A DNA stretch of 62,513 bases from an uncultured Collinsella sp. GTDB lineage: Bacteria > Actinomycetota > Coriobacteriia > Coriobacteriales > Coriobacteriaceae. The notes beneath the pieces are model-generated. The model saw only the letters and a list, made by a program, of their open reading frames with translations, was not told where the DNA came from and searched no databases. The position numbers and the translations under genes are program-made. Location: positions 1-62,513 of the forward strand of contig UREM01000008.1 in assembly GCA_900546775.1 (NCBI GenBank), read 5' to 3'. Shown here in pieces: positions 3,210 through 41,615 of the stretch (within the stretch, counting starts at the first letter, position 1; each line of letters starts with the position of its first letter).

Positions 3210-4036
3210 TGGCAGAGAAGAAGAAACTCTCTAAGAAAACGCTTGCCAAGTCGTTCCGTAACTGGTCCTATGGCAACCTGACTTGCTTCTCGCAGGAGCA
3301 CATGCAGACCTTCGGTTACCTGTGCGCCATGCTTCCGATCGTCGAGGAGCTCTACGACACGCCCGAGGAGCAGAAACAGACCCTCCAGACCTACTCCGCG
3401 TTCTTCAACACCGAGCCGCAGATCGGCACCATGATTGTCGGCGTCACCGCCGGCCTCGAGGAGGCTCGCGCAAACGGCGAGGCCATCGATGACGACGCCA
3501 TCAACGGCATCCGCGCCGGCCTCATGGGCCCGCTCGCTGGCCTTGGCGACTCGCTGATCGTCGGTACCCTGATCCCGATTCTGCTCGGTATCGCCCTCGG
3601 TCTCTCGACCGGCGGCTCTCCGCTCGGTGCCATCTTCTATATTGTCGTGTGGAACCTGCTCATGTTCCTTGGCATGCGCTTTGCCTACAACCAGGGCTAT
3701 GAGCTCGGCGGCAAGGCGGTCGAGGCCCTCGTCGGCCCCAAGGCAAAGGCTCTTCGCGATTCCATCGTGATGGTTGGTACCATGGTCATCGGTGCAGTCG
3801 GTGCTACCTGGGTCTCCATCACCTGCAGCCCCAACCTGGTGCTGCCCGGCGGCGGTAAGTTCCAGGACACCCTCGATGGCATCTATCCGCACCTGCTGCC
3901 GATGGTCTTCATCATCTTCTGCTGGTACATGATGACCAAGAAGAAGGTCAACCCCATCGTTATGATGCTGATTCTCGTCGTGATCGCATTTGTGGGCGTT
4001 CTCATTGGCTTCTTCGATCCGGCGCTGAGCTACTAG
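3209..4036 (+). CDS. PTS mannose/fructose/sorbose-family EIID component
   Basis: A 275-residue EIID membrane component, unique to the mannose PTS superfamily. Family signatures include SYGNLTCFSQEHMQTFGYL near the N-terminus and GLMGPLAGLGDSLIVGTL in the middle, followed by C-terminal transmembrane segments. It overlaps EIIC by one base and is followed by a strong terminator, so it closes the PTS operon. Confidence 0.95.
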   Translation: MAEKKKLSKKTLAKSFRNWSYGNLTCFSQEHMQTFGYLCAMLPIVEELYDTPEEQKQTLQTYSAFFNTEPQIGTMIVGVTAGLEEARANGEAIDDDAINGIRAGLMGPLAGLGDSLIVGTLIPILLGIALGLSTGGSPLGAIFYIVVWNLLMFLGMRFAYNQGYELGGKAVEALVGPKAKALRDSIVMVGTMVIGAVGATWVSITCSPNLVLPGGGKFQDTLDGIYPHLLPMVFIIFCWYMMTKKKVNPIVMMLILVVIAFVGVLIGFFDPALSY

Positions 4037-4058
4037 TCATCATCCTTTGACCCCCTGC

Positions 4059-4088
4059 AAGGCCGTGCGGCCTCAACCGCACGGCCTT
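4059..4088 (+). terminator. Intrinsic terminator of the PTS operon
   Basis: A 12-bp perfect stem (AAGGCCGTGCGG with its complement) and a 6-nt loop, followed by CTGATTTT. Confidence 0.88.
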
Positions 4089-4231
4089 CTGATTTTACGC
4101 CGCCCTTCAAGGGCAATATGGCCAGCGACCTCCATCGCCTACACGACACCCGCTATATTGCTCTTGAAAGATGACGTATTCGATAAACGATGCACTTGCG
4201 CATGATGCACACTTTGCACGAGGAGGACCAT

Positions 4232-4558
4232 ATGCACGAGAAACATGGACACGACCTTTCGCGCGACGACTTGATTCGCGAGGCAAAGATGCAGACCGAT
4301 GCTATTCAGCGGCTCAATGTTTGGCTGCGCCTGGGCTATTCGCTCGTGGCGATTGGCTTTTTGATGGGGATGTGGGGTATGCAGGGCGGCCCCGGCTGGG
4401 GTGTCCCCGTGGGCATCGTGTGCCTGGTGGTGGGCACTCCGCTTTCGATCGTGCTTAAGGTCGGCACGACCAACGCCAAAAAGAATGTCGAGCGCATGCT
4501 CGAGGCCGCTGGTGTCGACGTTGAGGAGCTTATGCGACGCAAGAAGGACGAGCAATAG
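4232..4558 (+). CDS. Small two-TM membrane protein, function unknown
   Basis: A 108-residue protein with a His-rich N-terminus (MHEKHGHDLSRDDL), two hydrophobic segments (about residues 35-50 and 57-75, LGYSLVAIGFLMGMWGM and VPVGIVCLVVGTPLSIVL) and a basic/acidic cytoplasmic tail. The start at 4232 follows GAGGAGGAC; an upstream ATG at 4190 lacks a comparable site. I recognise no family. It sits between the PTS terminator and a MarR regulator. Confidence 0.7.
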   Translation: MHEKHGHDLSRDDLIREAKMQTDAIQRLNVWLRLGYSLVAIGFLMGMWGMQGGPGWGVPVGIVCLVVGTPLSIVLKVGTTNAKKNVERMLEAAGVDVEELMRRKKDEQ

Positions 4559-4626
4559 ACTTCCGCGTTGGGGTATCATAAATAATTGTTGCGAATGTTA
4601 ACTAATGTACGGCAAATGACGGTTTT

Positions 4627-5103
4627 ATGGCCCTTCTAGAGTTGCAAAGGACAATATCCCCAGTGGATTACGATGACGTCGCTCGAAAACTGATTGTGTA
4701 CTCACGTTCCCTTGCCAAGGGATCCTTGAGTGCTGCCGGCGGCGCCAGTGTGGGCGAGGCACCGGTTTTACAGTATCTATCGGGTATTGACGGTGATGTT
4801 ATTCCCTCCGAGATTGCCAAGAAGCTGAAATTCTCCCGTGCGCGCATGTCGCATATCTTGGATTCACTCGAGAGCAAGGGTTACGTTCAGCGCAGGACCG
4901 ATCCAAACGATCGTCGGCGTGTGCTGGTGAGCATTACCGAGGAAGGCCGTGATTTCGCGGCGAAAAAAAATGCCGAGAGTGTGGCATCGCTCTCGAAGCA
5001 GCTCTCAGCGCTCGGCGAACACGATGCCCAGGAGCTCGTGCGCATCCTGAATAAAGCCTACAGCCTTACCTATGATGCCGACGACTACCTGGACAATCTA
5101 TAA
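4627..5103 (+). CDS. MarR-family transcriptional regulator
   Basis: A 158-residue MarR-type winged-helix repressor. The recognition region is IPSEIAKKLKFSRARMSHILDSLESKGYVQR, given here as IPSEIAKKLKF through GYVQR, and the wing is DPNDRRRVLVSITEEG. The start is uncertain: ATG 4627 has no clear Shine-Dalgarno, while an in-frame GTG at 4663 lies about 12 nt after AAAGG. Upstream DNA is AT-rich. It is followed by the long GH31 gene in the same direction, which it might regulate; that link is inference. Confidence 0.85.
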   Translation: MALLELQRTISPVDYDDVARKLIVYSRSLAKGSLSAAGGASVGEAPVLQYLSGIDGDVIPSEIAKKLKFSRARMSHILDSLESKGYVQRRTDPNDRRRVLVSITEEGRDFAAKKNAESVASLSKQLSALGEHDAQELVRILNKAYSLTYDADDYLDNL

Positions 5104-28451: not shown

Positions 28452-28662
28452 GGACGGTCCTTTGGATGGACGAATAATCGTGTCCTCGATTGTAGACCAT
28501 GACGGTAGGGGGTGGGCCTTTCGGGGGGGGCGCGCTTGGCAATAGCGTGCTCGTTGCCTTTTGCGCTGGCAGGTGCGCCACATGAGAATTTGTGCCCCAG
28601 GATCCGGATATCTTCCCGTAACATGGTGTTATAGAAGCACCCCTTACGACAAGGAGGCTCAC

Positions 28663-30264
28663 ATGCGAACGCAAATCCATGACAACCCAATCGACCACGG
28701 CCGCGCGTGCTCGCTCTCCCACGGAACATGGCGCCGCGTGGGCGCAAAACTCGCCTGCGCGGGGGCCCGCGCGCTCATGGCCGGCCAGCTGCTGCTGCCG
28801 AGCGTGGCGCTCGCCGCCGACTGGGTCAACGTGGGCGGCACGCAGTACGACGCGGGCACCGCTGCCGGCGACGAGGCAGGAACCTGGTCCTGGGACGGCG
28901 CCGACGACATGAAGCTTAACGGCTACGACGGCGGCTCCATCGGCGCCAAGGGCAACCTCACCATCGGCGTGACGGGCACCAACACCGTCACGGCCGACGC
29001 CGGGCAGAGCGCCATCGCTGTTAAGAACGGTAACCTTGCCATTACCGGCGACGGCACCCTGAATGCGACGGCCCAGAACGATGTGATTACGGCGATAGGC
29101 GACGGCAGGACCGGCGGCGATGTGACCATCAGCGGCGTCAGCGTCAACGCGACGGCTTCGGGTGCAGCGGAAAATGTGGCGGGCATTCGCGCGACGGCCG
29201 GCAGCGTGACAATCGATAAGGGCGCTGATGTCAAAATCGAGGCGAAATCGGCTGAAGGATCTTGGCGTCCAATGGAGGTCATCTGCGGTCTCCATGCTGA
29301 TAACATTCCAAACAGACACGCTGCCCAGGAAGGCGAGCAGGAAGAGTCGGATTCCGCTTATGAGCACGGCGGCGATGTCACCGTCGATGGCGCCAGTCTG
29401 TCGATTAAGACTGGCGATGCCTCGTGGGCTTCCATGTGCATCAATACGTTTGGTATCAAGAAGAATACCCTCATGAAAATCGTCAACGGAGCCGATGTCA
29501 CGCTTTCGGCTGGTAGTGCGGCTTCGCTCTCGGCTGGTATCAGCGCGCGCTCGCAAGACGGTGCGGTGTGGATGCTTGTCGAGAAGTCGAACCTCACGTC
29601 TCGAAGCCTGTCTGCCGCAAGCGGCATCGACGCCGATCGCAATCAAAGTTTTGGAATCATGGCAGAGGCAAATACCAGGTTTGAAACGCCTCGTATCCAG
29701 ATTTTCAAATCGAAGATTGAGGCTTCGGGCGCGACTGCGGGGATTTATGCGATCAACCGCAACGTCGTGAATACGACCATGTACCATGCCGCGATGATCG
29801 ATTTACGAGGGAACGCGACGATTACGATTCCGATGGACGGCGCCGTGCGCGATGTGAAAAAGGATGTCGATACGGGGCAATGGCCTAGTTCCCAGAGCGG
29901 GCAGGTCATCGGTGTTGCCGGTTCGTCTACGATTTCGGATATCGTCGGTTCTGCTGAGGTCGCCCATGATGTGGTGATTGATTTTGGAGACGGGCAGGAG
30001 CCGGACCCAACGCCGGACCCCGAGCCGGCTCCGGAGCCCGATCCCATGCCCAATCCCGAGCAGAAGCCTGACCTCAAGCCCGTAGACAAGGATGCAAAGA
30101 CCACCAAGACCGTTACGACCAAGACTGCAGCTGGGGCCAAAAACGCTTCCGGCGCCCTGGCCGCCACGGGCGATAGCGCCGCGATGGCGGCGGCAGCCCT
30201 CGGCATCGCCGGTGCGTCCGTCATCGGCGCCGGTTTCGTTGCGTCCAAGCGCCGCAACCGCTAG
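28663..30264 (+). CDS. Sortase-anchored surface protein with beta-helix-like repeats
   Basis: A 533-residue wall protein. ATG 28663 follows AAGGAGG. The signal region SLSHGTWRRVGAKLACAGAR...LLPSVALAA is nearly the same as in the next gene. The middle has Gly/Ala/Thr-rich imperfect repeats (GNLTIGVTGTNTVTADAG, GDVTISGVSVNATASG) typical of a right-handed beta-helix or a carbohydrate-binding repeat fold. A Pro/Asp/Glu linker (PDPTPDPEPAPEPDP) leads to the sorting signal LAATGD, a TM anchor and KRRNR. Function not recognised; adhesion or glycan contact is inference. Confidence 0.85.
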   Translation: MRTQIHDNPIDHGRACSLSHGTWRRVGAKLACAGARALMAGQLLLPSVALAADWVNVGGTQYDAGTAAGDEAGTWSWDGADDMKLNGYDGGSIGAKGNLTIGVTGTNTVTADAGQSAIAVKNGNLAITGDGTLNATAQNDVITAIGDGRTGGDVTISGVSVNATASGAAENVAGIRATAGSVTIDKGADVKIEAKSAEGSWRPMEVICGLHADNIPNRHAAQEGEQEESDSAYEHGGDVTVDGASLSIKTGDASWASMCINTFGIKKNTLMKIVNGADVTLSAGSAASLSAGISARSQDGAVWMLVEKSNLTSRSLSAASGIDADRNQSFGIMAEANTRFETPRIQIFKSKIEASGATAGIYAINRNVVNTTMYHAAMIDLRGNATITIPMDGAVRDVKKDVDTGQWPSSQSGQVIGVAGSSTISDIVGSAEVAHDVVIDFGDGQEPDPTPDPEPAPEPDPMPNPEQKPDLKPVDKDAKTTKTVTTKTAAGAKNASGALAATGDSAAMAAAALGIAGASVIGAGFVASKRRNR

Positions 30265-30287
30265 CGTAATCTTTCATAGCCATTTTC

Positions 30288-30323
30288 AGCCGCCGCGCGG
30301 GCATAAATGCTCTTGCGGCGGCT
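30288..30323 (+). terminator. Intrinsic terminator of the first surface-protein gene
   Basis: AGCCGCCGC pairs with GCGGCGGCT, followed by CTTTG; 23 nt after the stop codon. Confidence 0.75.
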
Positions 30324-30345
30324 CTTTGTATTTCCGCAGGTAGAT

Positions 30346-30373
30346 GCCTAGGTTCGCATCTACGAACCTAGGC
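30346..30373. repeat. Palindrome GCCTAGGTTCG/CGAACCTAGGC preceded by CAGGTAGA
   Basis: An 11-bp perfect inverted repeat with a 6-nt loop. A related element with the same leading CAGGTAGA and TAGGTTCG core lies at 33094-33127, on the other side of the second surface-protein gene. Confidence 0.7.
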
Positions 30374-30408
30374 GTACGGAGTCATTTGACACATCTTGGT
30401 GGTACAGG

Positions 30409-30443
30409 ACCACCACAAAGGGGACAGGCACCTTTGTGGTGGT
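30409..30443. repeat. Palindromic repeat ACCACCACAAAG with GGGACAGGCAC core
   Basis: Perfect 12-bp arms around GGGACAGGCAC. The same core occurs inverted at 33047-33083. It lies 26 nt upstream of the second surface-protein start. Confidence 0.8.
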
Positions 30444-30469
30444 ATGCCCCTACGACCAAGGAGGCCGTT

Positions 30470-32851
30470 ATGTGCGGAAGCCACTTTGGAAAGCAAACCC
30501 AGCGCGAGCGTACCTGCTCGCTGGTTCACGGTACCTGGCGTTGTGTGGGTGCCAAAATAGCTTGCGCCGGCGCGTGCGCGCTTATGGTCGGTCAGCTGCT
30601 GCTGCCGAGCGTGGCGCTGGCGACGGAATGCGCCGATCCCGCCGCTGGGACGGATGAGGTTGCCGCAGCTCCGGTGACGCCGACGGTTGCGGGGGATACG
30701 GCTGCAACGACCGCACCAGCTGCTTCGACCGCGCCTGCAACCGATGCTGCTCCGGCGGCGCAAGCCACCGTTGAGCCTCAGCAGACGGCCCCGACTGGCG
30801 CCACCGATGAATCCAACGATGCGGCACCCGCTGAACAAAATACTCCCAGCGACAACGCCGCCATGCCGGCGAGTAACGCCATCATGCCCTGCGGTGTGAC
30901 CGATGTTGTTGGCGGCAGCGGCGTTAGGGTCAATATTACGGTGCGGAACAATTACACCGACATCAAGAAAGAAGAAACGATTGAGTATGTGAAGGGGATT
31001 GCCCTTGTAGATGGAGACCAGTCTGCTCTCGATGGTAGCGCTTTGACTTTTATCGGCCTGGGGGACTTGATCGTCCATGCGGCGTATGACAGTGCGAGCA
31101 ATAAAACAACGCTTACCCTGGATATCAGCAAGATTCAGAGACAGAAGGAGGAGCAGAAGTACTTTACGGAGTACAAGGAGAATAAGTCCAAGATGACGAC
31201 CACCTATGATGGATCCAAGCTTACGTATACGGGTACAGAGCCCGGGAATATCATCATCGGTGATCCGGACGACGCCTTTAAAGGAGACACCGAGGCGACC
31301 GGGAAACCCACTATTAACGAGATCCGGGATGACTACTACACCCGCACCCATGTCTACGAGAGGGCGTGCCTTGTTATCCCGGCAGCGGAATCAGAATCGG
31401 AATCCATCTCCTTTGCCAATGTTCAGAATACGAACTTCAATTGGCAGCTGGATACTGGTCCGCAGGCGACGGCAGGTGTCCCTAACTACGATGCAGATAA
31501 ATACGAAATCGCTTATGAATGCTGGCAGGAATTTGAAAACAACGAACCCGTTGCTGCCTGGTATTCCGATAACGGCTCACATGGTTCCCTGCCGACTATT
31601 ACAAAGTTTAAAAGCGGGAAAGAGTACGTGTATTCTCTTATGCTGAAGCCAAAAGACGGATATTCCTTCAGCGGTGAAACCGTTGTTACCGTAAACGGGG
31701 AAACAGTAAAGTCGAGTCTAAGCGGAGAATTCCTGTATGTCCCTGCTATTAAAACAATTACGATGCCTGCTTCGTCGGAAAACGAAGCCCTCCATAACCT
31801 GAACGTCAACGACGTGAAGACCGACTACGCGCCCGGCGAGGCGCCGCGTGCGACCGCGACGATTCCTGCCGCCGATGCCGATAAGTATGAGATCGCCTAT
31901 GAGTGCTGGGGAGAGATGGATGGCAGCGACCCTGCGGAGCTCAAGCCCGTTGCCTTCTGGTATTCCGATCCCGCAAAGTACACGCCGGGCATGAAGAAGA
32001 TTGACCACTTCGAAGAGGGCAAGTTCTACATGTACTCCGTTGAGCTGAGGCTCAAGGGCGACAATACCGTGGCCGATGACTGCAATATGAACGTCAACGG
32101 TCATTGGGTGCACCACACAAAGACCGCCAACCGCGTCTTCGCGCCAAACGCTGACAATATGCTGTGCGAGCAGCCGATCGACGAATGGCGGGCCATCGAC
32201 GTTATCGAGATCAACGGCGCCACGACCACCTTCAAGGCGGGCGATAGGCCGGTCTTTACGGCGAATGTTCCGACGGGTTCCAACTCCCTTCCTCAGTGTG
32301 AGTTCTGGACGGGCAACGACGGCAGCGAAGTGAACTCCCAGAAGTTCTGGGATCAGAACATTACAAACCACATCGATGCTTTTAAGCCTGGCGTGACCTA
32401 TCGCTACGGCATCTACCTCAAGTCCGCGCGCGGCTTCTACTTCACGCCCGACACCAAGCTGGTGATCAACGGCCAGGAGTGCGGCTACCAGGTCGCGGAT
32501 AGCGTATCCGATGAGGACAGCGGCTGGATCTACACCCTGTGGCTCAACACCGATTTGACGTTTACGCCCGAAGCCACGCCGACCCCCGATCCGCAGCCTA
32601 CGCCGGATCCCAAGCCGACGCCGCAGCCTGAGGTTAAGCCTGAGACCAAGCCCGAGGTGAAGCCCGCGGCCAAGCCGGCCACGACAACCGCCACGACCAA
32701 GACGGTTGAGAAAACCACGCAGGCCAAGAAGAGCGATGCTGTCCTGGCTGCCACGGGGGATACCACCGCGATGACGGTCGCCGCCCTAGGCATCGCCGGC
32801 GCGACCGTAGCCGCCGCCGGCCTCGCCGCGACCAAGCGCCGCAAGCATTAG
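30470..32851 (+). CDS. Sortase-anchored surface protein with two repeated beta domains
   Basis: A 793-residue wall protein. ATG 30470 follows CAAGGAGGCC. The signal region (SLVHGTWRCVGAKIACAGAC, LLLPSVALA) closely matches the previous gene. A low-complexity Ala/Pro/Thr stretch (about 45-135) follows. Two tandem related domains share KYEIAYECW, PVAxWYSD and the KFxSGKxYxYSLML-like segment (about 330-480 and 490-630), and a third more divergent copy begins near FTANVPTGSNSLPQCEFW. A PTPDPQPTPDPKPTPQPEVK linker precedes sorting signal LAATGD, TM anchor and KRRKH. No known fold recognised for the repeats. Confidence 0.85.
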   Translation: MCGSHFGKQTQRERTCSLVHGTWRCVGAKIACAGACALMVGQLLLPSVALATECADPAAGTDEVAAAPVTPTVAGDTAATTAPAASTAPATDAAPAAQATVEPQQTAPTGATDESNDAAPAEQNTPSDNAAMPASNAIMPCGVTDVVGGSGVRVNITVRNNYTDIKKEETIEYVKGIALVDGDQSALDGSALTFIGLGDLIVHAAYDSASNKTTLTLDISKIQRQKEEQKYFTEYKENKSKMTTTYDGSKLTYTGTEPGNIIIGDPDDAFKGDTEATGKPTINEIRDDYYTRTHVYERACLVIPAAESESESISFANVQNTNFNWQLDTGPQATAGVPNYDADKYEIAYECWQEFENNEPVAAWYSDNGSHGSLPTITKFKSGKEYVYSLMLKPKDGYSFSGETVVTVNGETVKSSLSGEFLYVPAIKTITMPASSENEALHNLNVNDVKTDYAPGEAPRATATIPAADADKYEIAYECWGEMDGSDPAELKPVAFWYSDPAKYTPGMKKIDHFEEGKFYMYSVELRLKGDNTVADDCNMNVNGHWVHHTKTANRVFAPNADNMLCEQPIDEWRAIDVIEINGATTTFKAGDRPVFTANVPTGSNSLPQCEFWTGNDGSEVNSQKFWDQNITNHIDAFKPGVTYRYGIYLKSARGFYFTPDTKLVINGQECGYQVADSVSDEDSGWIYTLWLNTDLTFTPEATPTPDPQPTPDPKPTPQPEVKPETKPEVKPAAKPATTTATTKTVEKTTQAKKSDAVLAATGDTTAMTVAALGIAGATVAAAGLAATKRRKH

Positions 32852-32887
32852 AGCTGGGTGACGGCTCTCGTTCTCGGCCTCAGCAAA

Positions 32888-33025
32888 ATCTCAATCTGTA
32901 ACACCAAACTGCCCAAAACGGCTCTAGATGTTACAGATTGAGATGAACCAAATGGCCGCCAATCTAATGTCTCGATCTGTAACACCAAGCGGGGAATTTG
33001 ACCTCTAACTGTTACAGATCGAGAC
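32888..33025. repeat. Two-unit array of alternately inverted 16-nt repeats
   Basis: Units 32888-32944 and 32969-33025 each have 16-bp perfect arms (ATCTCAATCTGTAACA and GTCTCGATCTGTAACA with their complements) around 25-nt loops, and the units are 24 nt apart. The arms differ between units by paired substitutions. It starts 37 nt after the stop of the second surface-protein gene. A sister array is at 39836-40052. Confidence 0.85.
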
Positions 33026-33046
33026 AAACTGGCCGGCCAAGTCCAG

Positions 33047-33083
33047 AACCGCCACAAAGGTGCCTGTCCCCTTTGTGGCGGTT
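33047..33083. repeat. Palindromic repeat AACCGCCACAAAG, inverted GTGCCTGTCCC core
   Basis: Perfect 13-bp arms around GTGCCTGTCCC, the reverse complement of the core at 30409-30443. Confidence 0.8.
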
Positions 33084-33093
33084 TGCACAGGTA

Positions 33094-33127
33094 GAACGGT
33101 AGGTTCGTATATATGAACCTACCGTTC
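33094..33127. repeat. Palindrome GAACGGTAGGTTC/GAACCTACCGTTC preceded by CAGGTAGA
   Basis: A 13-bp perfect inverted repeat with an 8-nt AT loop, 61 nt before the third surface-protein start. It may serve as a terminator for the gene upstream or an operator for the gene downstream. Confidence 0.7.
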
Positions 33128-33187
33128 GCTTTGTTTTTGGACGACGATTACGCTGGATGACTTTTGGTTTGCAGGAAAGGAACGACC

Positions 33188-36100
33188 ATGAGGTGGACCA
33201 CTGTTCGAGCGCTTTGCCGCCGCCTGACCGTTGCCGCGGTGACCCTCACCATGGTGACGGGCTCGTTGCCTGTGGGCGCGTTTGCCGAGGCCCTCACCAC
33301 CGATAGCACCTTTGTGCAGACGGATAACGGCCAAGCAGGCGACGCCGCTTCCGCCGATTCGGCTGACGCCCAAACGTCAGACTCTGCTTCCGCCGACTCC
33401 ATGCCCGATGCCGGCGCTGCCGACCCCACAGTGCTCGATGCCGGTGACACCCCTACGCCCCCGGCCTCCGAGATTGCATCGGCGGCGGGCCTGACGGGCG
33501 CCGGGCAGACCGAGAGCACACCTGCGGGTACGCTCGCCACCGATCTTGTCGAGGGTAAGGAGCTCGCCGAACAGCAGAAGCAGGAGGAGGCTTCCGGTGC
33601 CGAGGCAACCTGGAACGAGGAACTTGAACTCTGGGCAACCTCGAAGGGCGCCACAGGCGTAAAGGACGAATACGACGATGGCTACGTGGCCGGCGAGCAG
33701 ACCCCCGCGCAGTACTACTTCTCGATCGATAGCCTCACCAACGAAATTTCTATCGAGTATGGCGACGCGGGCATTACCACGTTGGAGGTGCCCTCGACCA
33801 TCGACGACAAAAATGTCGTAAGCCTTACGGGTATGGGAAGCGCTGCGCTCACATCGATCACCTTCGCCCCTAATTCGCATGTCCGCTCTGTGGGCGGTTT
33901 GGGCGGCAGCAGCATCAAAGAGATCGCACTGCCCGATTCGGTCGAGGAGCTCAAGAGCTATGCATTCTACAAAAGCAAGACGCTCCAAACGGTAACCTGG
34001 CCCAACAACGCGGCCTTTACCACGATTCCCGAGCAGGCCTTTAAGGAATGTGAACAACTTGACGACAATGTGGTGGCAACGCTGCCGCCTTCGGTCAAAA
34101 CTATCGCCTATCTTGCATTCGCCTATTGCGGCGTGCCACAGTTCTATGTCTCGGACACAACAGTGCTCACCTTTACGCAGATCAATGTGCCGGGCACGGT
34201 GGAGCGGATTGAGCAACATGCCTTTGACGGGTGCTCCTTTGTGTCGTCGGTGACGATTGGCGATGGTGTCAAATCTATCGGGGCGCTCGCGTTCGCCTCT
34301 CTTGATCCTGCGATTGCCGGCAAAGAGATTGTGCTACCCAAAAGCGTGGAAATGATAGAGTGGGGAGCTTTTGAGAACACGAGATACGGAAACGAGACGA
34401 ACCATAATGCCGTTGCCCTGCGCGTGATGAACCCCGATCTTCAGTTTGGTGAGGCGGGCTATTCGGGCGACTATAATGAGCGCGTGACAATCGATGGCGT
34501 AACGTATGCGATTCCCTTTAGTGAAGGCCAGACCATCTATGCCTATGCGACCGATTCGACTGGCAACCCCTCGATGGTCAAAAAGCTTGCCGATGCCGTG
34601 GCCGATCGCAAGGACTCCGTCGATTCCTCGAAGCCTGCCTATACCTTTGAGTGGATGGGCGAGGCGGCCCAGGTGACGGGCAAACTTCCCCAGAGCGCGA
34701 CGGCTACACTCGTGCAGGCGGGGCAGTCCACGCCGCTGGCGGTTGGCGATGACGGCAGCTTTACAGCGGACGCTCTCTCCAAGACAGCAGCCACCCTGCG
34801 CATTTCGCTCAGCGGTTACTATGATATGGTGCTGGCGCGCCCGGGCGACCAGATGACGGGCACATGGAATATCGGAGAGATTAAGGCGGAGGACTTTACC
34901 AAGATTCCGGCCTCGCGCGCGATTGAACTCAACGTGGGCTATCTTGAACCGATTGTGGGCCAGGATAAGACCGAACGCATTGAGCTCGATAGTCTCGATA
35001 ACATCGATCTGACGGTGAAGAGCGGCGGCAAGACGCTTAAGCCTGCCAAGGGTGACAAAGAAAACGACTTCCGTATCCAGGGCACAGCACTCGTGGTGTC
35101 GCAGGCCATTGCCGACGCGGACCAGGATCTGGAGATAACGCTCGAGCCCAAAGACAGCCTCAGGCTGGGTGGGGCGACGGCGACGGTGAAGCCCTCGGCC
35201 GGCAAGCTCGATATCGACTTGAAGCCTTGGGGCACGGCGACGGTCACGACCAAGGGCGACTACCAGGGCGCCAACCGCGTGCTGGTGTTCCGTACGTCCG
35301 ACGGCAAGCTCGTCGCCGACGGTGTCACCTATTTGATGGGTTACGAAGACGATGGCACCACGCCTATCATGAAGGCCGAGACGCCGCGCCTTAAGGCCGG
35401 TTCGTACACCATCGTCGCCTTTAACAAGACGAGCTACGACATCCAAGCGACGAGCTATTCCACGTTTAGCCGCCTAGGGCTGACCGTGGGTAAGCATATC
35501 GCGCAAAAGCAGGTGAAGATTGAGGACGGCAAACAGCTCGACGTGACGCTCGACGTCCCCACGTTTGACGTGGAGACGTATCGTGCCGAGCGTGGGCTGA
35601 CGGCGGGCTCGGTTATCGCTGATTCGTCCGCGGTCGTTGGCGTGGAGACCGAGCTGCGCATTCATTACGAGCTCAAGGACAGCCAGGCTGCCAAGATTGA
35701 GATTCCGCTGGCCAAGGATGCCGTCGAGGATGTGTCCGCAGGCGCTCGCGAAGCCGGCGCCAGCTCCGATGCCATGTGGGCTGGCACAACTTGGGAGGGC
35801 GATAACCTCGTTCTCAATATGAAGAAGGGCATGGGCGCCGATGTGTTTGTGCGCTTTAAGCCTAAAGCCGCGGGCACCTATGCCATCTCGCCGCTCATTA
35901 CGCTGGGCGAGGTGACATTGCCGCTGGGAAGCACCACACTCGAGGTTAGAGGATCGCGCATCGAGGTCGACAACACCGACGTTCACAGCCTGCTGGGCAA
36001 TGTGGCCTACGTATACGCAGCGCCGGGCAAGAGCGTGCAGCTCACCGTGGGCATGGGCGCCTCGGCCGCAAAGTACACTGGCAAGACCAATAAACTCGGC

Positions 36101-39100
36101 CGTGCCAAGATTGAATACGACCTGCCGCAGGATACGCTTGCCGCCGAGCGCGTGATGCTCGAGGCACGCGTGGGGTCGACCGACGTCGCCGCGGCTACCG
36201 CAGAGGTGACGGCTCGCAATTATGTGCGCTATGTTCCGGGCGCTTCGGTCTGGAACTTTGATGTGACGTATCGTGGCGGTACGCAAAACCTGGTCAAGGA
36301 CGGCAAGGACACCGGCAAGAGCCTGTGGACCTTCCATCATCTGCCGCAAAAGAAGAACGCCTACTGGACGTTCGATATCACGCTCGAGGTGGGAAACGAA
36401 GAGGCCGCCGACACGCTCGACCTGTACGTGGACTGCGTGGATGGCAAGACGGTGACGATTCCTCTGACTCAAAAGTCGCGCGAGAGCACCCATGTGCGCT
36501 ATGTGGCGGAGTATGTGGACGAGGGTTACCTTAAGCTGCTCGACGAGTTTAACAAAGCGAATGACTCGACCTATGTGAACTGCGGCAACTTTGAGCAAAT
36601 CTTTATGCCGCAGACCTACCGCATCTCCAATGCCCAGCTTATGACCATGCTGAGTTTTGACGCCAAAGCTTCGGCCAAAAAGCATTCCGCCGCGGCCGAG
36701 GAGCGCCAGCAGGAGTTCTCGAATGCCGTGCAGCAGTGGCACGAGTATATGATGGATAACTCTTTTAACGACGTGGACCAGGCCTTTAACGATGCGATTG
36801 ACCAGATGGTCGCCGATGCGTTTGCTGAGGAGGACAAGGACGGCAAGGACGAGGGCGGCAACGCGCGTAAGGCTCGTCGCGCCCCTGCTGCCAGCGACGG
36901 CGAGGGTGATGATGCTGGCAACGACGAGGCCGCGCAGTTTGCCGCCGAGCTTAAGGTTGCGGTTGGCGGCTCGTCGGCGCTGCTGACCAAGCGGGGCGAC
37001 AGCTATGGCGTCAATGTGGACAAGATGATCTTTGAGGACGCGTACGGCACCGGCGAGGATTGGTACCAGGAACTCGCGTCGGCCCAGGGTGCAAGCGCGG
37101 CGGACGCGGCGGCGCTCAAGGAGCTTGTTGACCATGCATCGCGAGCGGAGTTTATTGCCCAGCAGGCCGAGGATCTGGTGGGCCAGTCGATGGGTATCGG
37201 CCAGCTCAACCAATACGGAAGCTGGAATGACGCAACCGCTGCGGCGCTCAACAAGTGTGCGGGCATTAAGGCCAGCGAGTACAGCGGCCAGTCGACGAGC
37301 GGGTTTAACGATTTGGGCCAGGCGCTCGGCAGCTCGCTGAGCTACAAGGCGGCTGACGACGATACCGTCAAGGGCTTTAAAGTCGCCGCGCCCGATGGCG
37401 AGCAGACGGCCTATATCGAGTCGGAATTTATCGAGAACTCCAATAACAACAAGAACCAGGCGCTTCTGTTTAACTCGATCGCCATGCAGTGCGACATTCT
37501 GGACAACCTGTACGATAACTGGAACGTGGTCCATAGCCTCAATAACTCTACGATTCGCGGCTGGCTTATGGCTTGGAAGCGCAACGGCGACGTGAGCGCC
37601 CATATGAAGCTCATCCGCACGATTCGCTCACTCAAGAGCTATAAGATCGAGTGCGAGATGTTCGGCCAGGTCTTTAAGACCGATGCGTGGAAGGCGGCCG
37701 GCCAGGCGTTTCCCGCGGCGACCCAGGGCATCGGCATCTTTACCGGCATTTACGGCGTGAACGATGCCAGCAAGAACTGGGAGAACGTGAACGTCCGTAT
37801 GCAGAAGGTGAAGGGCGAGCGCGAGGGCTATGAGCTTCAGCATACGCGCTTGCTTGCCAAGCCCGAGAAGACCGAGGATGACTGGAAGTGCATTTACGCG
37901 CTGCGTGATGCCATGGAGAAGGCGCGTGCGTTTGAGGATCTGCTGTATCGCCAGCTCTGCCACGACAGCACCGATGTGGCGGTGGGCTCCATTATGACAA
38001 TCGCCGGCGTGCTGACGGCCGGTTCGGCGGGTACTGTGGTGGGCGCTGCCTATGACGCGGCTTCGACCAGCGTAGGTTCGGAGCGCGCGATTAAGCTGAC
38101 CAATGCCGAATGCGCCTACGATGTTGCCTGCGAGCAGGTGGAGCGCGCATGCCAGAATCGTATTACGGTCAACTGGGGCGAGCTGACCGATGCCGAGGTC
38201 TATAACGCCAACAAGGACGGCTTGATCTCGGACGAGAAGATGCAGTCGATCTTCGAGGCACGTTATCGCAATGTGGCCGCCAAGGCCGCACCCGATCCTG
38301 CGGGCGTGGTGTACGAGGGCCTGCTGTCCAATACGGTCGAGGGCGCGACGGTTGAGCTGTGGAGCGCCGACGATGCGGCCGGTACCAATGCAGTGCGTTG
38401 GGATGCCGAGGAGTATGAGCAGGACAATCCGCTTGCGACGGGTGCGGACGGTGCTTACAACTGGAATACGCCGACCGGCTGGTATCAGGTGCGCGTGACC
38501 AAGGACGGGTATGAGGAGGCGCGTTCGGCTTGGCTGCGTGTGCCGCCGATTCAGACTGAGGTGAACATTGGCTTGGTGTCGACGGCGGCGCCCGAGGTGG
38601 CTTCGGCCCATGCCTATACCGATTGCATCGAGGTTGAGTTTGCGCAGTATATGGATGCGAGCGACGATGCCCTGGCCGCATTGTACGCGCGGGGCTTGGG
38701 CGACGTGACGTATGCGTGGCTCGACAAGCAGGACGATCCCAATGGCAAGCCGTTGTCGCGCGTGCTGCGTATTCGCTATGCCGATGCGCGTGAGGCGGGC
38801 TCGACGGTGGCGTTTGAGCTCGACGGTGCTCGCAACTACGCCGGCACGGCCATGGCGCGCTGGGCAAGTGGCGAGCTTGTCGTGGGCGTTCGCGCCGACA
38901 AGCTCAAGCTCAACGTGGAGCAGGCCGTGACCATGCTTGAGGGCAGTGATTTTGAGCTGGTGGCGCATGTGACCGATAGGGCGGGCAAGCCGTTTGCGGG
39001 CGCCAAGGTTAGTGTTGGGCTGGAGTCCTCGGCTATCTGCTCTGTCGATGCCACCCAGGCCGTGACGGGCGAGGACGGCGCGGCGACGTTTGTGCTACAT

Positions 39101-39799
39101 GGTGCTCTGCCCGGTTTGACGACGCTGACGGCGGCGGTGGACGGCACAGCGCTGTCCAAGCAGGTCGACGTTCGCGTGTCTGCCGAGGCAGTGCGACCGG
39201 CGCGACCGGTGGCGACGATTGGTGCGACGACGTTTGGTGCATGGTCGCCCAAGGAGAACTACATTACGGTGCCCAAGGGCACGAAGCTGGAGCTTTCGGC
39301 CGAGGATGGCACGACGATTTGGTACACCACCAACGACACCTGCCCCTGCCGCGACGAAGGCCGCGTAAAGTACACCGAGCCTATTGCGCTCGATAGCAAT
39401 ATGCATGTGCGCATTGCGGCACAGCGCCCTGGCATGTCGTACAGCGAGTATTCCGAGCGTCTGAACATTACGATTACGGTGACCGATGAGGCGGCGCCTG
39501 AGCCCAAGCCGGAGCCCGAGCCCAAGCCGGAACCCAAGCCGACGCCTGGCAGCGGTGAGCAGGGTGGCGGTGCGGATGGCTCTGGCGGTACCGGGGCTCC
39601 TGCGGGCGGTTCGACTTCGACGACGACCACGGTGACGACGGACAAGTCCAAGGGTAAGGGCGAGAACGGCAAGAAGACCGGCGGCACGGAGCTCGCCAGC
39701 ACGGGTGACTCCGCCGCGATGACGGTCGCCGCTCTGGGCATCGCCGGCGCAACTGTCGCCGCTGCCGGCATTGCCGCGACCAAGCGCCGCAAGCGCTAG
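33188..39799 (+). CDS. Giant sortase-anchored surface protein with BspA-like leucine-rich repeats
   Basis: A 2203-residue wall protein, the largest in the window. ATG 33188 follows AGGAAAGGAACG. Signal peptide about 1-33 (ending GAFAEAL). Residues about 198-400 are BspA/LRR_5-type repeats (IKEIALPDSVEELKSYAF, VERIEQHAFDGCSFVSSVTI). Then beta-rich domains to about 1100, a long mostly helical region (about 1110-1700) with a glycine-rich hydrophobic stretch VGSIMTIAGVLTAGSAGTVV, a carboxypeptidase-regulatory-like domain (about 1705-1790), an SbsA-like domain, a Big_1-type Ig domain (about 1905-1998), a chitobiase-like C-domain (TIWYTTNDTCPC, about 2005-2098), a PEPKPEP linker, sorting signal LASTG (2169-2173), TM anchor and KRRKR. 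Probably an adhesin; the helical region is not recognised. Confidence 0.88.
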   Translation: MRWTTVRALCRRLTVAAVTLTMVTGSLPVGAFAEALTTDSTFVQTDNGQAGDAASADSADAQTSDSASADSMPDAGAADPTVLDAGDTPTPPASEIASAAGLTGAGQTESTPAGTLATDLVEGKELAEQQKQEEASGAEATWNEELELWATSKGATGVKDEYDDGYVAGEQTPAQYYFSIDSLTNEISIEYGDAGITTLEVPSTIDDKNVVSLTGMGSAALTSITFAPNSHVRSVGGLGGSSIKEIALPDSVEELKSYAFYKSKTLQTVTWPNNAAFTTIPEQAFKECEQLDDNVVATLPPSVKTIAYLAFAYCGVPQFYVSDTTVLTFTQINVPGTVERIEQHAFDGCSFVSSVTIGDGVKSIGALAFASLDPAIAGKEIVLPKSVEMIEWGAFENTRYGNETNHNAVALRVMNPDLQFGEAGYSGDYNERVTIDGVTYAIPFSEGQTIYAYATDSTGNPSMVKKLADAVADRKDSVDSSKPAYTFEWMGEAAQVTGKLPQSATATLVQAGQSTPLAVGDDGSFTADALSKTAATLRISLSGYYDMVLARPGDQMTGTWNIGEIKAEDFTKIPASRAIELNVGYLEPIVGQDKTERIELDSLDNIDLTVKSGGKTLKPAKGDKENDFRIQGTALVVSQAIADADQDLEITLEPKDSLRLGGATATVKPSAGKLDIDLKPWGTATVTTKGDYQGANRVLVFRTSDGKLVADGVTYLMGYEDDGTTPIMKAETPRLKAGSYTIVAFNKTSYDIQATSYSTFSRLGLTVGKHIAQKQVKIEDGKQLDVTLDVPTFDVETYRAERGLTAGSVIADSSAVVGVETELRIHYELKDSQAAKIEIPLAKDAVEDVSAGAREAGASSDAMWAGTTWEGDNLVLNMKKGMGADVFVRFKPKAAGTYAISPLITLGEVTLPLGSTTLEVRGSRIEVDNTDVHSLLGNVAYVYAAPGKSVQLTVGMGASAAKYTGKTNKLGRAKIEYDLPQDTLAAERVMLEARVGSTDVAAATAEVTARNYVRYVPGASVWNFDVTYRGGTQNLVKDGKDTGKSLWTFHHLPQKKNAYWTFDITLEVGNEEAADTLDLYVDCVDGKTVTIPLTQKSRESTHVRYVAEYVDEGYLKLLDEFNKANDSTYVNCGNFEQIFMPQTYRISNAQLMTMLSFDAKASAKKHSAAAEERQQEFSNAVQQWHEYMMDNSFNDVDQAFNDAIDQMVADAFAEEDKDGKDEGGNARKARRAPAASDGEGDDAGNDEAAQFAAELKVAVGGSSALLTKRGDSYGVNVDKMIFEDAYGTGEDWYQELASAQGASAADAAALKELVDHASRAEFIAQQAEDLVGQSMGIGQLNQYGSWNDATAAALNKCAGIKASEYSGQSTSGFNDLGQALGSSLSYKAADDDTVKGFKVAAPDGEQTAYIESEFIENSNNNKNQALLFNSIAMQCDILDNLYDNWNVVHSLNNSTIRGWLMAWKRNGDVSAHMKLIRTIRSLKSYKIECEMFGQVFKTDAWKAAGQAFPAATQGIGIFTGIYGVNDASKNWENVNVRMQKVKGEREGYELQHTRLLAKPEKTEDDWKCIYALRDAMEKARAFEDLLYRQLCHDSTDVAVGSIMTIAGVLTAGSAGTVVGAAYDAASTSVGSERAIKLTNAECAYDVACEQVERACQNRITVNWGELTDAEVYNANKDGLISDEKMQSIFEARYRNVAAKAAPDPAGVVYEGLLSNTVEGATVELWSADDAAGTNAVRWDAEEYEQDNPLATGADGAYNWNTPTGWYQVRVTKDGYEEARSAWLRVPPIQTEVNIGLVSTAAPEVASAHAYTDCIEVEFAQYMDASDDALAALYARGLGDVTYAWLDKQDDPNGKPLSRVLRIRYADAREAGSTVAFELDGARNYAGTAMARWASGELVVGVRADKLKLNVEQAVTMLEGSDFELVAHVTDRAGKPFAGAKVSVGLESSAICSVDATQAVTGEDGAATFVLHGALPGLTTLTAAVDGTALSKQVDVRVSAEAVRPARPVATIGATTFGAWSPKENYITVPKGTKLELSAEDGTTIWYTTNDTCPCRDEGRVKYTEPIALDSNMHVRIAAQRPGMSYSEYSERLNITITVTDEAAPEPKPEPEPKPEPKPTPGSGEQGGGADGSGGTGAPAGGSTSTTTTVTTDKSKGKGENGKKTGGTELASTGDSAAMTVAALGIAGATVAAAGIAATKRRKR

Positions 39800-39835
39800 G
39801 TTTTGGCGACGGCGCCCATCCTCGGCTTCGTCAAA

Positions 39836-40052
39836 ATCTAAATCTGTAACACCAGGCCAGTAAAAATGGCTCTAGGTGTTACAGATTTAGATGAACGGTC
39901 CGGCCGTCAGCCTAATGTCTCGATTTGTAACACCAAGCGGGATATTTGGCCTCTAACTGTTACAGATCGAGATGAACAGGCGGATGTTCGCACAATATCT
40001 TGATCTGTAACAACTACGAAGCTCAACGGGGTCTAACTGTTACAGATTGAGA
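39836..40052. repeat. Three-unit array of alternately inverted TCTGTAACA/TGTTACAGA repeats
   Basis: Hairpin units at 39836-39892 (18-bp arms), 39918-39972 and 39998-40052 (15-bp arms, some G-T pairs). Loops and inter-unit gaps are all about 25 nt, giving a period near 80 nt. The array starts 37 nt after the stop of the giant surface protein. Changes in one arm are matched or kept as G-U pairs in the other, which favours an RNA hairpin. Confidence 0.85.
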
Positions 40053-40086
40053 CAAACGCCGGAATTGGTTTGCCGACCAGACCCCA

Positions 40087-40123
40087 GATCACCACAAAGG
40101 CACCTGCCCCCTTTGTGGTGGTC
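40087..40123. repeat. Palindromic repeat CACCACAAAG/CTTTGTGGTG
   Basis: Ten-bp perfect arms plus flanking G-T pairs around GCACCTGCCCC, a variant of the GGGACAGGCAC core in inverted orientation. Confidence 0.75.
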
Positions 40124-40143
40124 GGGCGGCCGGCATAGAAAAA

Positions 40144-40205: not shown

Positions 40206-41615
40206 TTACTCGCCCAGCAGGCTCTTGGTGATCGAAGCGGCGGCCTTCTTGCCGGCGCCCATCGCCAGAATGACCGTAGCGGCACCGGTGACGATGTCGC
40301 CGCCGGCCCAGATGCGGGGATCGGTGGTCTGGCCGGTCTCCTCGTCGGCAACGATGTAGCCCCACTTGTTGAGCTCCATCTTGCCGCCGATCTTGGCAGC
40401 GAAGGGGTTGGCGTTGGTGCCGATGGCCGAGATCGCGACGTCGCAGGGAATCTCCTCGATGGCACCCTCGATGGGCACCGGGCGACGACGGCCGGACTCG
40501 TCAGGCTCGCCGAGCTCCATCTTCTGGACCTTGACGGCGCACACGGAGCCATCCTCGCCAGCGACAAACTCGAGCGGGGAAACGAGCGGCAGAACCTCGA
40601 CGCCCTCGGCCTTGGCGTGGTGCAGCTCGGCGCGACGGCAGGGCATCTCGTCCTCGGTACGACGGTAGGCGATGATGGCGTGCTCGGCGCCCAGACGCTT
40701 GGCGGTACGGACGGCGTCCATAGCCACGTTGCCGCCACCAAAGACGACGACGTTCTTGCCGTGCTTGGTGGGGGTGTCGTACTCGGGGAACTTGTTGGCC
40801 TTCATCAGGTTCACGCGGGTGAGGTACTCGTTAGCGAAGAAGACGTTGGGCAGGTTCTCGCCGGGGACGTTGAGGAACTTGGGCAGGCCAGCGCCGGTCG
40901 CCACGTAGATGGCGTCGAAGCCCTGCTCGAACAGCTCCTCGGCCGTGGCCATGTTACCCACGACGGAGTTGTACTCAAACTTGACGCCCATGTCCTCCAG
41001 GCCGTCAATCTCGCGCTTGACGACTGCCTTGGGCAGGCGGAACTCGGGGATGCCGTAGACCAGCACGCCGCCGCCGGTGAAGAAGGCCTCAAAGACGGTG
41101 ACGTCAAAGCCGTTGCGGGCGAGCTCGCCGGCGCAGGTGATGCCGGACGGGCCGGAGCCGACGACGGCGACCTTCTTGCCGTTCTTGGGGGCCATCTTGG
41201 GCGTGGAGGCGAGCTCGGGGCGGTCACCCAGGAAGCGCTCGAGCTGGCCGATGGCCACGGGCTCGGACTTCTTGCCACGGATGCACTTACCCTCGCACTG
41301 GTTCTCCTGCGGGCAGACGCGGCCGCAGATGGCGGGAAGCATGGAGTCCTCGCGGATGGTATCGAGAGCGCCGCCGAAGTCCTTCGCGCGGATCTGCTCG
41401 ATAAAGCGGGGAATGTTGATGTTGACGGGGCAGCCCTCAACACAGAACGGCTTCTTGCAGTTGAGGCAGCGCTCGGCCTCGGCCAGCGCCATCTCCTCGG
41501 TGAAGCCCTTGTCGACGGGGCGGAAGTCGCAGGCGCGCTCGGCAGCCGGCTCCTCGTTATCGGGGGTGCGGGGCGACTTCATATCGGCAACGAAACGACC
41601 GTTAACTAGTGGCAT
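40206..41615 (-). CDS. NfnB-type (GltA-like) NADPH oxidoreductase subunit
   Basis: A 469-residue iron-sulfur flavoprotein. The N-terminal domain has cluster cysteines CLNCKKPFCVEGCP and CGRVCPQENQCEGKC. Two dinucleotide-binding motifs follow (VAVVGSGPSGITCAGELA for FAD, VVVFGGGNVAMDAVRTA for NADPH). Alone this family is called glutamate synthase small subunit, but the overlap with an NfnA/PyrK-like gene makes an electron-bifurcating NADH-dependent ferredoxin:NADP oxidoreductase (NfnAB) the better call. No large GltB-type subunit is present. Confidence 0.85.
   Translation of the reverse strand: MPLVNGRFVADMKSPRTPDNEEPAAERACDFRPVDKGFTEEMALAEAERCLNCKKPFCVEGCPVNINIPRFIEQIRAKDFGGALDTIREDSMLPAICGRVCPQENQCEGKCIRGKKSEPVAIGQLERFLGDRPELASTPKMAPKNGKKVAVVGSGPSGITCAGELARNGFDVTVFEAFFTGGGVLVYGIPEFRLPKAVVKREIDGLEDMGVKFEYNSVVGNMATAEELFEQGFDAIYVATGAGLPKFLNVPGENLPNVFFANEYLTRVNLMKANKFPEYDTPTKHGKNVVVFGGGNVAMDAVRTAKRLGAEHAIIAYRRTEDEMPCRRAELHHAKAEGVEVLPLVSPLEFVAGEDGSVCAVKVQKMELGEPDESGRRRPVPIEGAIEEIPCDVAISAIGTNANPFAAKIGGKMELNKWGYIVADEETGQTTDPRIWAGGDIVTGAATVILAMGAGKKAAASITKSLLGE

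What the first reader, a model, noticed from the sequence alone, without database searches (positions are those of the whole stretch)
32888..33025. Regular array of alternately inverted repeats downstream of a surface-protein gene
Seen directly: a 16-nt repeat (core TCTGTAACA) alternates with its reverse complement, separated by 25, 24 and 25 nt. Arms differ between the two units by paired changes (CTCAATC/GATTGAG against CTCGATC/GATCGAG). Loops start CC and end near TCTA. This is neither an ordinary terminator nor a CRISPR array, because the repeats alternate orientation and lack long spacers. Inference: a family of structured RNAs or protein-binding arrays tied to surface-protein genes.
Basis: seen in the sequence. 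Interest (0 to 1): 0.75.

Follow-up and report, generated by a model that had tools for sequence, protein, structure and literature searches.

The report
Phased inverted-repeat arrays in Collinsella
One group of gut Collinsella bacteria carries, between its genes, short runs of a rigidly spaced inverted DNA motif that appears to be kept by selection and looks like a landing platform for an unidentified DNA-binding protein.

Summary
The array is real, and a second one (three units, 39833-40056) follows the next surface-protein gene. The unit is two inverted 24-nt half-sites (WWTRTCTCRATCTGTAACANNTAG) around a spacer of 25 nt between cores with an A/T centre, repeated every 80-81 bp. The exact unit occurs 18-47 times in 22 of 43 genomes of the genus, once in one, never in 20, and in 0 of 259 sampled genomes of other genera of the class.

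Arrays are intergenic beside ordinary genes, so the tie to surface proteins is local. Arm changes do not covary across 182 diverged units, so the paired changes are independent R/Y degeneracy, not a conserved RNA stem. Core, outer TCT and A/T centre vary little between presumed orthologues; linkers vary freely. Recent copying is not seen, although whole arrays are present or absent at one site between species.

Best reading: vertically inherited duplex-DNA binding arrays for an unidentified clade-specific protein, probably architectural. BIMEs and REPINs are laid out alike, but the REP palindrome, compensatory changes and an adjacent RAYT gene were not found. Partner protein and function remain unknown.

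The parts
32885..32947 (.). Array 1, unit 1: half-sites 32885-32908 (+) and 32924-32947 (-), A/T-type centre 32914-32918
   Evidence: PWM 33.0 / 40.1
32966..33028 (.). Array 1, unit 2: half-sites 32966-32989 (+) and 33005-33028 (-)
   Evidence: PWM 37.7 / 40.6; 81 bp from unit 1
39833..39895 (.). Array 2, unit 1 (arms TCTAAATCTGTAACA / TGTTACAGATTTAGA)
39914..39976 (.). Array 2, unit 2 (left core ATTTGTAACA, one mismatch)
   Evidence: 81 bp from unit 1
39994..40056 (.). Array 2, unit 3
   Evidence: 80 bp from unit 2
30344..32851 (+). Surface-type protein (835 aa; surface assignment from its C-terminal hydrophobic stretch and basic tail, by eye); array 1 starts about 33 bp downstream
   Evidence: only a weak low-complexity Pfam match, below cut-off
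33164..39799 (+). Large surface protein (2211 aa) with BspA-type LRR, Big_1 and Fn3-associated domains; lies between arrays 1 and 2
40206..41615 (-). Fer4_20 + pyridine nucleotide-disulphide oxidoreductase (glutamate-synthase small-subunit type; name by inference); convergent with array 2

Best explanation
The feature belongs to a dispersed intergenic family found in one Collinsella clade. Shown here: the unit is a dyad of two 24-nt half-sites WWTRTCTCRATCTGTAACANNTAG facing each other across 25 nt (between the 9-mer cores) with an A/T-rich centre; units are stacked every 80-81 bp, mostly 2-4 units; cores and centre vary little between presumed orthologous copies; whole arrays and single units are present or absent between species; and no evidence for a maintained base-paired stem was found. 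Inferred: the conserved object is duplex DNA, and each half-site is read as a bipartite motif (outer TCT, then TGTAACA and TAG along the helix) by one subunit of a sequence-specific protein. Two subunits and a bendable A/T centre would make one unit, and neighbouring units would bind cooperatively because their spacing is fixed. Arrays would thus nucleate a compact nucleoprotein structure in gene-free DNA. A chromosome-architecture role (looping, domain boundary, segregation or supercoil anchoring) is likelier than control of the next gene, because the neighbours are unrelated and convergent intervals are over-represented. The protein is not identified.
For: Spacing: 301 of 305 units allowed a 20-30 nt gap have exactly 25, in 10 genomes (my sums). 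Half-sites found independently by PWM in 121 sources: +/- step 42 in 366 cases against 43 in 3; unit-to-unit step 37/38/39 in 8/133/96. No arm covariation. Constraint in 65 similarity groups taken as orthologous: mean pairwise difference 0.021 in the core, 0.010 at TCT, 0.021 and 0.019 at centre positions 20 and 21, against 0.166 in linkers and 0.171 at -3/-2; the centre was not in the search matrix and was treated like the linkers in the grouping. Centre positions 20-22 all A/T in 162 of 182 units. Placement: 47 of 48 distinct arrays avoid called genes (60-bp tolerance), the other overlaps a 63-base call; convergent 15, divergent 11, tandem 21 against 51/72/206 for array-free gaps, p=0.014. 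Neighbours unrelated.
Against: No binding protein was found; these tools hold no binding, expression or ChIP data. The low half-site variation is partly built in, since units were collected with the half-site. Steps of 34 and 46-47 bp between core centres are not whole helical turns at 10.5 bp. Array positions differ between species, which fits a nearly neutral repeat as well as a functional one. An origin-proximal trend is not significant (KS p 0.10-0.40 in G022 and G023). Spacers and linkers of different arrays are slightly more alike than shuffled columns (mean 0.347-0.349 vs 0.335-0.338), so some common descent remains visible.
Confidence: 0.55

Rival explanations
1. BIME/REPIN-like mobile repeat: inverted doublets spread by a REP-associated tyrosine transposase (RAYT) and clustered by recombination.
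For: Same layout: inverted pairs, spacer of conserved length, extragenic, tandem clusters (REPIN passages). Arrays are present or absent at one site: prfC site without array in 10 of 21 carrier genomes, 2-4 units in 11. A Y1 transposase of RAYT type (about 270 aa, one hit per genome at this identity) is at >=71% identity in 21 of 22 carriers and at most 41% in the 21 other Collinsella genomes. A few unit pairs in one genome (up to 0.69 in spacer and linker, shuffled maximum about 0.52) suggest old copying.
Against: In the neighbourhoods of 18 of the 33 Y1_Tnp hits (16 of the 20 in carriers), 3.5-4 kb on each side (2.1 kb on one side of L271), 17 have no half-site scoring >=14 and one (L281) has a single weak one (18.2), never a unit. 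Half-units do not fold (mean z 0.24) and show no GTAG head. No compensatory changes. Mean spacer and linker likeness is close to shuffled, so no recent copying. The 21-of-22 match is confounded: 21 carriers share 95-100% prfC DNA identity with G022, the non-carrier G029 84%; carrier G006 has 26 units without that gene.
Confidence: 0.22
2. Operator arrays of a transcription factor that controls the flanking genes.
For: Dyad motif with a purine/pyrimidine-tolerant consensus; 11 of 47 arrays lie between divergent genes, and arrays lie a median 142 bp from start codons; 6 of 30 flanking proteins in G022 are regulator-type (LacI, DeoR, GntR; two each) and one more has a transposase-type HTH.
Against: 15 of 47 arrays lie between convergent genes; neighbours share no pathway; array presence changes between species at sites where the genes stay. 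Five of the 6 flanking regulator genes face the array with their 3' end.
Confidence: 0.1
3. Structured RNA family or 3'-UTR/terminator element.
For: The window array folds far better than shuffles (z -9.49), as any perfect inverted repeat must; it lies close to a stop codon here. Of five measures on the 57-row alignment, further pair types comes nearest to support (38 of 500 shuffles).
Against: No covariation; strand-symmetric; 25-nt loop; the only terminator-like site in 32700-33200 is a separate hairpin at 33094-33127, and shuffles give 0.8 on average; divergent intervals hold arrays as often as array-free gaps (23% vs 22%); no Rfam match there at the gathering threshold.
Confidence: 0.06
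4. Decaying relics of an old mobile element, without present function.
For: Intergenic, variable presence between species, one Collinsella clade.
Against: Low variation at core, TCT and centre compared with linkers and a spacing kept in over 98% of units are hard to explain under neutral decay, though part of the first is a search effect.
Confidence: 0.07

Closest known systems
BIME (bacterial interspersed mosaic element)
   Same: Regularly spaced intergenic repeats in alternating orientation (abstract and passages of PMC2817692)
   Different: The half-site is not itself an imperfect palindrome and shows no GT(A/G)G head; fewer copies than the >100 usual for REPs; spacing here is nearly invariant
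REPIN (REP doublets forming hairpins) with RAYT
   Same: Inverted doublet of a conserved short sequence, spacer conserved in length, tandem clusters (PMC3116915 passages)
   Different: No compensatory changes in the arms, no unit beside the 18 Y1 transposase genes examined, no near-identical copies within the two genomes tested
Dispersed binding sites of chromosome-organising proteins (parS-, matS- and Noc-site-like; recalled, no call)
   Same: Tens of conserved dyad sites dispersed over one chromosome, largely indifferent to neighbouring genes
   Different: As recalled, known sites are single short palindromes; here long bipartite half-sites, a 25-nt spacer and 80-81 bp stacking; no protein known; no significant ori bias

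Membership tests
REP/REPIN | Two inverted copies separated by a spacer of conserved length | tested here: met
   25-nt spacer in 301 of 305
REP/REPIN | Each REP holds an imperfect palindrome behind a GT(A/G)G (or CGTC) head | tested here: not met
   Half-units fold no better than shuffles (mean z 0.24, 3.3% below -2; 120 half-units of 60 sampled units out of 182); no such head in the consensus (by eye)
REP/REPIN | Compensatory changes keep the hairpin | tested here: not met
   182 units; 57 units
REP/REPIN | Cognate RAYT gene flanked by the repeat | tested here: not met
   18 of 33 Y1_Tnp hits examined (16 of 20 in carriers): no unit within the fetched 2.1-4 kb flanks; one (L281) with a single weak half-site
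REP/REPIN | Single-copy RAYT shared by all carriers | tested here: inconclusive
   21 of 22 carriers, 0 of 21 non-carriers at >=71% identity, but confounded with ancestry
MITE | Near-identical dispersed copies within a genome | tested here: not met
   Copies in G022 and G023 differ in all but the half-sites; best pair 0.69 in spacer and linker
MITE | Target-site duplication at insertion | tested here: inconclusive
   None seen by eye at filled and empty prfC sites, which differ by more than a clean insertion
Intrinsic terminator | Short-loop stem followed by a T tract | tested here: not met
   loop 25 nt
Structured RNA family | Covarying base pairs | tested here: not met
   no Rfam match at gathering threshold
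Protein-binding site array | Specific protein binds the duplex motif | not testable with these tools
   needs pull-down, EMSA or ChIP
Protein-binding site array | Motif, spacing and centre under constraint | tested here: met
   (half-site part biased by the search; centre not part of the matrix)

The most novel reading that the evidence does not exclude
A clade-specific, so far undescribed DNA-binding protein assembles on dyad arrays with an 80-81 bp repeat and forms wrapped or filamentous nucleoprotein nodes at about 15-18 intergenic loci per chromosome (G022, G023). It would be a sequence-addressed chromosome-organising system unlike ParB/parS, MatP/matS or BIME-gyrase, in which the number of exact units stays within 25-47 in the 21 carrier genomes that are at least 95% complete while positions turn over.
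Probability: 0.3. Interest if true: 0.78.

Novelty: new variant of a known kind. Interest (0 to 1): 0.55.

Why it matters
Collinsella is a common human gut genus whose nucleoid biology is, as far as I recall, little described. A motif this long, this rigidly spaced and this clade-limited should have one cognate protein, which a single DNA pull-down could reveal. The family also shows that a BIME-like layout can exist without the REP palindrome and without a transposase gene beside it in the cases examined, and it offers between-species presence/absence at defined sites, a natural experiment on what dispersed intergenic arrays do.

Tried and rejected
RNA stem and covariation: tested three ways and rejected. 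In one search mutual information in the arms was raised (z up to 14) by a few chance non-family rows, on matrix-selected units, shows none. One such row (L104, no unit with matrix support) remains in alignment A1, model R1. Surface-protein link: rejected. RAYT: phyletic match, but no adjacency and confounded. Ori/ter bias: not significant. Phosphorylase gene as an empty-site probe: failed, because a close relative (96-100%) exists only in the 4 carriers among the 19 genomes searched. Viral contigs: two with the unit pattern (L140, a true array; L141, no matrix support) and two with the half-site pattern (L140 and L283, the latter a single half-site). One search used a wrongly designed gap (40-50 instead of about 71) and found nothing even in carriers, so it is void; one search replaced it. 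In one search the scored candidates were capped near 79 per genome, so its counts are not copy numbers. The first context de-duplication was too strict (28 arrays, p=0.089) and was redone on variable positions (48 arrays, p=0.014); the choice affects the p value. Literature: searches showed nothing on this family in the titles and abstracts listed; most listings were truncated (10-15 papers listed of 128, 2,131, 93, 160 and 50 held; 10 of 10; none) and hits to the core letters were not opened, so absence from print is not shown. I read find-passages of PMC3116915, PMC2817692 and PMC3733652; PMC8049555 was seen as a listing only.

Full report
What is there. A second array of three units follows the next surface-protein gene (39833-40056). 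A half-site matrix built from diverged units finds ten half-sites in the window, with steps +/- 42 and, between units, 39, 39 and 38.

Range. The unit pattern TCTGTAACA-N25-TGTTACAGA occurs in 23 of 43 genomes of the window's nearest genus: 18-47 copies in 22 of them (25-47 if the 72%-complete G043 is left aside), one copy in G013, none in 20; the reversed control pattern has none. In a class-level sample 21 of 296 genomes match, all among the 37 of this genus, so 0 of 259 others; one genus of 125. A sequence model of the unit finds nothing in 22 genomes of other genera of the family, and one or two units each in G013, G031, G041 and G046 (stricter filters). The window's own assembly is not held.

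Anatomy. From 139 diverged units both halves give the same consensus WWTRTCTCRATCTGTAACANNTAG, with A/T at the centre (centre all A/T in 162 of 182 units). When gaps of 20-30 nt are allowed, 301 of 305 units in ten genomes have exactly 25 (my sums). Half-sites found independently in 121 sources give 366 steps of 42 against 3 of 43, and unit-to-unit steps of 37, 38 and 39 in 8, 133 and 96 cases. Arrays mostly have two to four units (1: 22, 2: 62, 3: 59, 4: 22, 5: 3, 8: 1 of 169, orthologues included).

Not a conserved stem. The variable arm positions -10, -9, -8, -7, -3 and -2 pair no more often than their own composition predicts in 182 units less than 80% alike; position -10 pairs less than expected (67 against 84.7). 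In 57 aligned units the share of paired cells is 87.8% against 87.4% shuffled (138 of 500 shuffles reach it), the covariation score is reached by 83 of 500, and further pair types by 38 of 500. Slid versions pair far less, as they must for a palindromic core. The array folds strongly as RNA (z -9.49), but any perfect inverted repeat does.

Constraint. In 65 similarity groups taken as orthologous the mean pairwise difference is 0.021 in the core, 0.010 at the outer TCT and 0.021 and 0.019 at centre positions 20 and 21, against 0.166 in linkers, 0.111 in the inner spacer and 0.171 at -3/-2. Units were found through the half-site, so low rates there are partly built in. The centre was not part of the matrix, and the free positions -3/-2 were, so the pattern is not only a search effect. 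Within one genome, spacers and linkers of different arrays share 34.7-34.9% of letters, against 33.5-33.8% after column shuffling (39 units in G022, 43 in G023). A few pairs (up to 0.69) exceed the shuffled maximum of about 0.52 and suggest old duplications.

Place. In G022, G023 and the window, 39 array places (four of them single half-sites, one of these weak) lie between called genes, with up to 26 bp of overlap. In a larger set, 47 of 48 distinct arrays avoid called genes and the other overlaps a 63-base call; 15 are convergent, 11 divergent and 21 tandem, against 51, 72 and 206 for array-free gaps (p=0.014; gene calls are my own hexamer-based ones, and a stricter de-duplication to 28 arrays gave p=0.089). 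The flanking proteins of the 15 G022 arrays are unrelated. Distance to dnaA shows a weak origin-ward trend that is not significant.

Turnover. At the prfC site 10 of 21 carriers have a 54-55 bp interval without an array, and 11 have two to four units, with differences that by eye fit recombination between equal arms (the twenty-second carrier, draft G043, gave no prfC match). At the site of window array 2, 12 of 22 carriers have the array within 480 bp, 8 do not, and 2 could not be judged (contig end or changed sequence). Of the 12, five show the surface gene's end before the array, six do not and one view is too short (by eye). Of the 15 G022 arrays, 10 have strongly matching flanks at a G023 array, 2 weaker ones and 3 none (L150, L153, L161, which compares array-bearing regions only). 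In G023 one unit is split by a 1353-bp insertion element with 25-bp inverted ends and an 8-bp repeat of the target, so units can also be broken.

Mechanism. Rigid spacing, dyad symmetry, a bipartite half-site, an A/T centre and the absence of covariation point to duplex DNA read by a protein that binds cooperatively over several units. That step is inference. Indifference to neighbouring genes makes an architectural role likelier than a regulatory one. The partner is unknown. A Y1 transposase of RAYT type is found at >=71% identity in 21 of 22 carriers and 0 of 21 others, but carriers form one close group, carrier G006 lacks it, and no unit stands in the neighbourhoods of the 18 Y1 genes examined out of 33 hits, so it is only a lead.

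Known kinds. BIMEs and REPINs share the layout (passages) but fail here on head and palindrome, compensatory change and transposase adjacency. I therefore do not file the family as REPINs. It works like a binding-site array; membership in any named class is open.

Noticed in passing
window 33047-33083 and about 40089-40125: Both arrays are followed by a second hairpin family, CCACAAAGGTGCCTGTCCCCTTTGTGG; at the array-2 site several genomes have it on both sides of the array and array-free genomes have one copy (by eye). The GACAGGCACC-type core lies within 200 bp of 10 of 39 array places.
   Followed up: partly
L173 (G023), 3592-4944: A 1353-bp insertion element with 25-bp perfect inverted ends sits inside the spacer of one unit, with the 8-bp repeat GCAGCTAG on both sides.
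   Followed up: partly
window 33094-33127: Separate hairpin with a T-rich tail, the only terminator-like site at 32700-33200; shuffles give 0.8 on average.
   Followed up: no
L265-L271 and L277, central gene: RAYT-type Y1 transposase of about 270 aa with a C-terminal HTH-like end (by eye), without flanking repeats of this family, at >=71% identity in 21 of 22 carrier genomes.
   Followed up: partly
L282 (G007) and L281 (G011): A different, short Y1 transposase (about 157 aa, IS200-like by my reading) with four equal-scoring copies in G007.
   Followed up: no
L156 (G022) and L169 (G023): Three and two arrays within 10 kb around GH1, PTS and LacI-type genes.
   Followed up: no
L159, 3253-4425: IS110-family transposase about 560 bp from a four-unit array.
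   Followed up: no
L010 (G013:C21, near contig end): A single, high-scoring unit in a genome otherwise without exact units: transfer or assembly contamination.
   Followed up: partly
L283, 1768: A lone high-scoring half-site in a 13.5-kb viral contig, without a partner half-site.
   Followed up: no
window 28561-39799: Three consecutive surface-type protein genes; the last two have similar 3' ends, each followed by an array, as if duplicated together (by eye).
   Followed up: partly
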